A stretch of DNA of 64,000 nt from an uncultured Anaerolineae bacterium (GTDB taxonomy: Bacteria > Chloroflexota > Anaerolineae > Promineifilales > Promineifilaceae), in contig CALEAD010000079.1 of assembly GCA_937943625.1 (NCBI GenBank), positions 26,061 to 90,060 of the forward strand, in the 5' to 3' direction. Position 1 is the stretch's first letter. Each line of letters starts with the position of its first letter. The notes below the pieces were generated by a model, which was not told where the DNA came from, did no database searches, and was given only the letters and a program-made list of their open reading frames with translations. Positions 34,838 to 34,980 of the stretch are shown here, piece after piece. Position numbers and translations under genes: made by a program.

Positions 34838-34980
34838 GGGGCATGGTTGAAGCAATCTTTATAACTTGACCGCTGACTGCCGACCGCTGACCACGATTTT
34901 GCCAGTAAGGGGGACGGCCGTCGGTCGTCTGCAATCAAAAATTTATAAAGCACCCTTTTCAGAGAAAATGAATCATGCCC
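34838..34980. repeat. MITE-like element, copy 4 (both ends present)
   Basis: ggggcatggttgaagcaatctttataacttgaccgctgac...atttataaagcacccttttcagagaaaatgaatcatgccc. Confidence 0.75.

What the first reader, a model, noticed from the sequence alone, without database searches (positions are those of the whole stretch)
34838..34980. MITE-like intergenic element family with GGGCATGGTTCA-type ends and a GACCGC/GCGGTC palindromic core
Copies near 4377-4475, 21447-21576, 22873-22990, 34838-34980, 43109-43236 and 60082-60220 share imperfect terminal inverted repeats: GGGCATGGTT(G/C)AAGC..TCTTTATAA on the left, TTATAAAGC...AGAGAAGATGAACCATGCCC on the right. The core is a GC-rich inverted repeat built from GACCGCNGACNGCCGAC units. 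No ORF lies inside and lengths are about 100-145 bp. This looks like a non-autonomous mobile or REP-like family. I found no transposase in the window.
Basis: seen in the sequence. Interest (0 to 1): 0.8.

Follow-up and report, generated by a model that had tools for sequence, protein, structure and literature searches.

The report
Transposon relics carrying local palindromic repeats
The intergenic repeats in this Chloroflexota genome are roughly 200 old, non-coding copies of a mobile DNA element whose uncharacterised transposase was found only in related species; in each genome examined the same transposon ends enclose a different, usually palindromic, local repeat.

Summary
The repeat is real and is a MITE (a non-autonomous transposon). 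The element is about 140 bp, with terminal repeats GGCATGGTTCA...TGAACCATGCC, an inner CTTTACAA box, and 8-bp target-site duplications: 25 of 58 full-length copies match at 6/8 bases or better, against 1.2 expected by shuffling. I extrapolate to about 200 full-length copies in the 4.09-Mb genome, almost all intergenic and 78% alike on average. The autonomous parent was found in related Anaerolineae: a 1.86-1.90-kb insertion sequence with the same ends, perfect 8-bp duplications in two cases, and a 543-561-aa DDE transposase distantly related to ISL3/DUF6399. The host genome has no detectable transposase, so the family looks stranded there. The unexpected part: the same bipartite ends occur in 21 of 250 class members, and in each genome examined they enclose a different core (heptad arrays, GTAG-REPs, other palindromes). 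In one genome 23 of 29 copies of the core repeat lie outside any MITE, so the core looks captured. A second dispersed, species-specific module (heptads + GGTCATTTTCAAGGGAG) sits directly before start codons.

The parts
34832..34839 (.). left 8-bp target-site duplication CAGGTTGG
   Evidence: 7/8 match to the right copy
34840..34979 (+). full-length MITE, 140 bp: TIR GGCATGGTTGA, CTTTATAA box, GACCGC heptad core, inner repeat TTTATAAAG, TIR TGAATCATGCC
34980..34987 (.). right 8-bp target-site duplication CAGGTTCG
43110..43234 (+). full-length MITE with part of the left core arm deleted; flanks CCAATTTG / CCAAGTGC (5/8)
60083..60220 (+). MITE with both TIRs but a rearranged right subterminal region (GGTCATTTTCACAG...); no target duplication left
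21447..21576 (-). MITE of a second subfamily (TCATGACGC... / ...AAGATGCTTTGAACCATGC)
22864..22990 (-). chimera: MITE end (TGAACCATGTC at 22990) and core joined to a leader module that runs into the start codon of the gene 22216..22851(-)
4366..4474 (+). chimera: leader module of the gene 2730..4364(-) joined through heptads to a MITE right end (TGAACCATGCC at 4474)
7206..7298 (+). MITE core only (heptads plus GGCAATTTTGCCA), ends lost
   Evidence: E=4.7e-17, model positions 29-118
36153..36250 (-). MITE core only, ends lost
   Evidence: E=4.8e-19, model positions 21-109

Best explanation
These are MITEs mobilised in trans by a DDE transposase distantly related to ISL3/DUF6399. Shown by sequence: ends GGCATGGTTCA plus an internal CTTTACAA box; 8-bp target duplications; an autonomous 1.86-1.90-kb relative with the same ends and an intact 543-561-aa transposase gene in related Anaerolineae. 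Inferred: the transposase reads the TIR and the CTTTACAA box together (the spacing between them falls mostly at about 6, 16-18 or 26-27 bp, roughly whole helical turns apart), mobilises the element, and inserts it with an 8-bp stagger into AT-rich intergenic DNA. Any DNA between two such ends can be carried, and in this lineage the cargo is a resident repeat, here an inverted pair of GACSGCN heptad arrays. In this genome the element amplified some time ago, the transposase was then lost, and the copies are decaying; heptad arrays now recombine with other heptad-bearing modules and give half-copies (inferred).
For: Family: at least 150 genome-wide CM hits; 58 non-redundant full-length copies in 1.19 Mb. 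Target duplications: 25/58 match at 6/8 or better against 1.16 expected (maximum 6 in 5000 shuffles); 7 are perfect; 65% AT against 48% AT in intergenic DNA. Placement: mean coding overlap 8% where 88% of the sequence is coding. Parent: nine transposase loci in GTDB genomes; six (L157-L162) have GGCATGGTTCA-type TIRs on both sides at 1862-1899 bp, with 8/8 duplications GAAAAGTG (L159) and CGATTTTG (L162). Of seven related proteins, six score above Pfam's DDE_Tnp_ISL3 cut-off of 23 bits (one of them, P0055, without a qualifying single stretch); the best PDB fold match is a transposase, ISCth4. Bipartite ends elsewhere: 21/250 class members, 0 matches to the reversed control pattern. Syntenic regions of genus-mate G001 lack the elements. 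Transposase traces in 5 end-carrying genomes and in none of 9 non-carriers. Age: mean pairwise identity 78%, maximum 92%.
Against: The transposase has not been shown to act on these MITEs; the match is by ends only, and no transposase or remnant is in this genome, so the link is across species. 33 of 58 copies have no recognisable duplication, as expected of old insertions but not proof. The 5-versus-0 association of transposase traces with ends is too small to be significant on its own. Genus-mate flanks are too diverged to show base-exact empty sites.
Confidence: 0.92

Rival explanations
1. Not mobile DNA: a selected regulatory or structural RNA/DNA element (terminator, mRNA-stabilising hairpin, REP-like gyrase site) that spread by recombination and is kept for its hairpin.
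For: Elements from 11 genomes fold into near full-length hairpins (z from -2.8 to -11.7). Insertions are intergenic.
Against: 8-bp duplications need transposition. In this genome the two arms of one copy are less complementary than arms taken from different copies (z -1.5 to -3.2), so pairing is not maintained. RNAalifold finds 14 pairs, one with a compensatory change, covariation term near zero. No Rfam match. In tandem gene pairs copies lie 14 with and 23 against transcription, no clear preference.
Confidence: 0.04
2. The element is a RAYT/REP system: the palindromes are REPs moved by a REP-associated tyrosine transposase and the GGCATGGTTCA ends are incidental.
For: In G014, G001 and G015 the core is a GTAG-type REP palindrome, a class reported in Chloroflexi (PMC3733652).
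Against: REPs make no 8-bp duplications bounded by TIRs (general knowledge). The conserved part across species is the ends, while the core changes. The parent carries a DDE-type protein, not a tyrosine transposase.
Confidence: 0.02
3. The MITEs descend from the parent element by ordinary internal deletion, and the palindromic core arose inside the element rather than being captured from resident repeats.
For: This is the textbook origin of MITEs. The subterminal ~38-40 bp matches the parent's ends.
Against: Nothing inside the CTTTACAATT box resembles the parent. Cores differ completely between genomes. In G014, 23 of 29 copies of the core palindrome have no TIR nearby; here 103 of 328 heptad arrays have none.
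Confidence: 0.2

Closest known systems
ISL3 family insertion sequences and their MITEs
   Same: GG-starting TIRs, 8-bp AT-rich target duplications (ISL3 traits from general knowledge), one transposase gene, DDE_Tnp_ISL3 score above Pfam's cut-off for six of seven relatives.
   Different: Transposase 543-561 aa and element 1.86-1.90 kb, longer than typical ISL3 as I know it. NCBIfam ISL3 score 16-33 bits or no match against a cut-off of 180. Full-length members fall below the Pfam cut-off and touch DUF6399 weakly instead.
IS256 family (ISCth4)
   Same: Best fold match of the predicted transposase is ISCth4 (Foldseek probability 1.00); a long helical insertion in the DDE core.
   Different: E-value only 1.7e-3 and TM-score 0.23-0.36 on a medium-confidence model (pLDDT 73.7, pTM 0.52); no Pfam match to the IS256 family.
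Bacterial MITEs such as RUP, NEMIS/Correia, Nezha, ERIC
   Same: Short, TIR-bounded, non-coding, many copies, intergenic (families as listed in PMC3733652).
   Different: Different ends and parent. The core is not conserved across species but is swapped for a repeat resident in each genome.
GTAG-type REPs / BIMEs
   Same: In G014, G001 and G015 the MITE core is this kind of palindrome.
   Different: REPs have no TIR or target duplication. In the window's genome the core is a heptad array instead.

Membership tests
MITE (non-autonomous TIR element) | Terminal inverted repeats | tested here: met
   GGCATGGTTCA / TGAACCATGCC in the full-length copies
MITE (non-autonomous TIR element) | Fixed-length target-site duplication | tested here: met
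   8 bp, 25/58 at 6/8 or better against 1.16 expected
MITE (non-autonomous TIR element) | Short, no transposase gene, high copy number | tested here: met
   median 140 bp, 58 full-length copies in 1.19 Mb; the only TIR pair 1-4 kb apart with a good duplication joins two separate MITEs
MITE (non-autonomous TIR element) | Autonomous relative with the same ends | tested here: met
   L157-L162, in related species, not in this genome
ISL3 family (parent element) | DDE_Tnp_ISL3 domain | tested here: inconclusive
   24-32 bits in six of seven relatives against a Pfam cut-off of 23, one of them without a qualifying stretch; 15.9-18.2 bits or no match in full-length members
ISL3 family (parent element) | NCBIfam ISL3 equivalog cut-off (180 bits) | tested here: not met
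   16-33 bits in six proteins, none in the seventh; so not filed as ISL3, only as ISL3-related
ISL3 family (parent element) | 8-bp target duplication | tested here: met
   L159 GAAAAGTG, L162 CGATTTTG; MITE copies
REP/RAYT system | Palindrome associated with a RAYT, no TIR or duplication | tested here: not met
   TIR and duplication present; DDE-type parent
Known RNA family | Rfam covariance-model match | tested here: not met
   only four tRNAs match in the window

The most novel reading that the evidence does not exclude
One transposase system with a fixed pair of ends has, in lineage after lineage of Anaerolineae, been loaded with whatever palindromic repeat is common in that genome (heptad arrays, GTAG-REPs, GTCATTCCGAGG hairpins), because a hairpin core helps the element transpose or persist. 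MITEs would then be vehicles that spread genome-specific repeats, and some of these repeats would go on to be recruited as gene leaders carrying the ribosome-binding site.
Probability: 0.3. Interest if true: 0.65.

Novelty: new variant of a known kind. Interest (0 to 1): 0.5.

Why it matters
It explains where much of the intergenic repeat content of these genomes comes from and gives a parent transposase family, annotated in the sources only as hypothetical protein, that can be tested. The core-swapping across genomes bears on an open question: how REPs and short tandem repeats get dispersed, and why many bacterial MITEs have palindromic interiors. If a hairpin core is needed for movement, that can be tested directly with a two-plasmid transposition assay.

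Tried and rejected
A transposase in the window's genome: none for IS1595, ISL3, P0001 or the profile A4; two DDE_Tnp_1 genes have no pair of matching ends around them. A candidate 945-bp 'autonomous' TIR pair on C60 turned out to be two separate MITEs. My first arm-complementarity test and copy counts counted palindromic copies twice, once per strand; they are replaced by the de-duplicated. The heptad-array counts come from a separate scan and stand. RNA secondary-structure conservation: not supported. Literature: no paper in the library joins MITEs with ISL3 in Chloroflexi, or MITEs with Anaerolineae; looser searches gave nothing on this family.

Full report
WHAT IS THERE. The window is a stretch of contig C79 of a 4.09-Mb, 89-contig assembly. 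Its DNA polymerase I (ORF 23033-25855, minus strand) is 71-80% identical to proteins named Ardenticatenaceae and Candidatus Promineifilaceae, so it is a Chloroflexota genome, by inference of class Anaerolineae. They align from end to end, not only in the core. A blastn of the 34838 copy against the genome gives 41 matches.

BORDERS. In 1.19 Mb of fetched contigs, iterative nhmmer gives 232 non-redundant loci at E <= 0.01, 145 at E <= 1e-6, and 58 full-length copies of median 140 bp. With the element defined as GGCATGGTTCA...TGAACCATGCC, 25 of 58 copies have flanking 8-mers that agree at 6 or more of 8 positions, 16 at 7 or more, 7 at all 8. Shuffled pairs give 1.16 and 0.42. The duplicated sites are 65% AT against 48% in intergenic DNA. 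So the unit inserts with an 8-bp stagger. The copy at 34840-34979 has CAGGTTGG/CAGGTTCG. Copies overlap coding sequence by 8% on average where 88% of the sequence is coding. Gene calls here are crude longest-first ORFs.

PARENT. The two-part end (TIR plus TTGTAAAG box) was searched in 250 genomes of the class: 21 carry it, and the reversed control pattern has no match. One of these ends, in G143, lies just upstream of an open frame (L134) with no Pfam family. Its homologues include proteins with the DDE_Tnp_ISL3 domain. Nine loci encoding the family were found in GTDB genomes. In L157-L162 the gene lies between GGCATGGTTCA-type TIRs 1862-1899 bp apart; L159 and L162 have perfect 8-bp duplications. 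Five of these have open frames of 543-561 aa; in L162 the longest frame from a methionine is 375 aa. The protein has invariant acidic residues at the RDET, QKDxWH and TSSxxE motifs across A6, which I take to be the catalytic triad (inference). The AlphaFold model (pLDDT 73.7, pTM 0.52) has ISCth4, an IS256-type transposase, as its best PDB match, at modest scores. It falls far below the NCBIfam ISL3 cut-off. I therefore call it ISL3/DUF6399-related and do not file it as ISL3.

END GEOMETRY. In the parent the distance between TIR and CTTTACAA is 16-17 or 27 bp; in the MITE consensus it is 6 at one end and 18 at the other. Among class-wide matches 16 and 17 dominate, with 6 and 26-27 recurring, though 12, 15, 18, 19 and 24 also occur. 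That looks like helical phasing of two contacts on one face of the DNA. It is an inference from spacing, not a binding result.

CORES. The ends are constant and the core is not. In the window's genome the core is GACSGCN heptad arrays in inverted orientation; the same type was read once in another genus (L189, duplication AAGATATC on both sides). In G014, G001 and G015 it is a GTAG-type REP palindrome. In G139 it is ACGTTTT heptads, in G158/G176/G193 GACGTTT heptads, in one G034 copy a GTCATTCCGAGG hairpin, and in G115, G152, G194, G250 and G029 other sequences, palindromic in whole or part. Fourteen such elements from 11 genomes fold better than dinucleotide shuffles, z -2.8 to -11.7. Two short elements (L131, L141) have almost no core. 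In G014, 23 of 29 sites of the REP have no TIR nearby, 5 have one and 1 has both. The simplest reading is capture of a resident repeat. Elements were picked by TIR pairs, not by palindromy, but only a handful per genome were read.

STATE IN THIS GENOME. No transposase or remnant was found. No two full-length copies exceed 92% identity. Arms within a copy are less complementary than arms between copies, so the hairpin is decaying rather than being kept. Genus-mate G001 lacks the elements at the syntenic intergenic regions of the 34838, 21447 and 22873 copies, although its flanks are too diverged for a base-exact empty site.

A SECOND MODULE. Their other end is a module, heptads followed by GGTCATTTTCAAGGGAG, that sits right before start codons. 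In 1.19 Mb, 42 of 60 motif sites are followed within 15 nt by the start of a frame of 60 codons or more, against 21% of random sites. Orientation to the next gene is 38 sites pointing at a same-strand start within 200 bp against 7 in the opposite sense. The exact 16-mer followed by ATG within 12 nt gives 55 matches in this genome and none in 38 family members. Several carry a MITE half upstream. I think heptad arrays act as joints at which modules recombine; this is inference.

VERDICT. The element is a MITE with a related autonomous parent in sister taxa. What goes beyond the ordinary is the exchange of cores between genomes and the leader module.

Noticed in passing
window 9079-9128(+), 12084-12115(-), 25886-25927(-), 29745-29794(+), 38655-38718(+), and at 4366(-) and 22864(-): Dispersed leader module: heptad array + GGTCATTTTC(A/C)(A/G)GGAG or close variants a short distance before start codons of unrelated genes, so the repeat supplies the Shine-Dalgarno. 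55 exact copies before ATG in this genome, none in 38 family members.
   Followed up: partly
whole window, e.g. 4530, 16500, 24945, 49540: The palindrome ACGGCCGT (often AACGGCCGTT) is extremely common: 114 in the window and 1830 in 1.19 Mb, where nine other 8-mer palindromes have 0-51. It occurs inside genes and resembles HIP1 of cyanobacteria in abundance. No paper in the library joins 'highly iterated palindrome' with Chloroflexi.
   Followed up: partly
window 19174-19227 and 25933-25986: Inverted pair of a GTAG-REP-like repeat GTAGCGCGGTTTTCCAAACCGCG...TCGAACT...AGTTCGA; related palindromes are the MITE cores in other species.
   Followed up: no
window 53222-53290 and 57910-57978: Repeat GTCATTCCGAGGAGTC...GACGAGGAATTCC, 91% complementary pair; the same kind of hairpin is the core of a MITE in another genus (L137).
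   Followed up: no
window 52289-52467: Another heptad array (GTCAATCGCCAATGGGCAATG, 21-nt spacing), just after the end of the ORF 50621..52261 and inside the listed start of the ORF 52258..53187.
   Followed up: no
window 8836-8942 and 48653-48758: Long inverted pair of a CACGGAG/CTCCGTG-rich repeat, 81% complementary.
   Followed up: no
L153 (G176), L185 (G029), L186/L188 (G193): Fragments of the parent transposase gene, with stop codons in L153 and L185, in genomes that carry the MITE ends; some have TIR matches nearby. They look like dying autonomous copies.
   Followed up: partly
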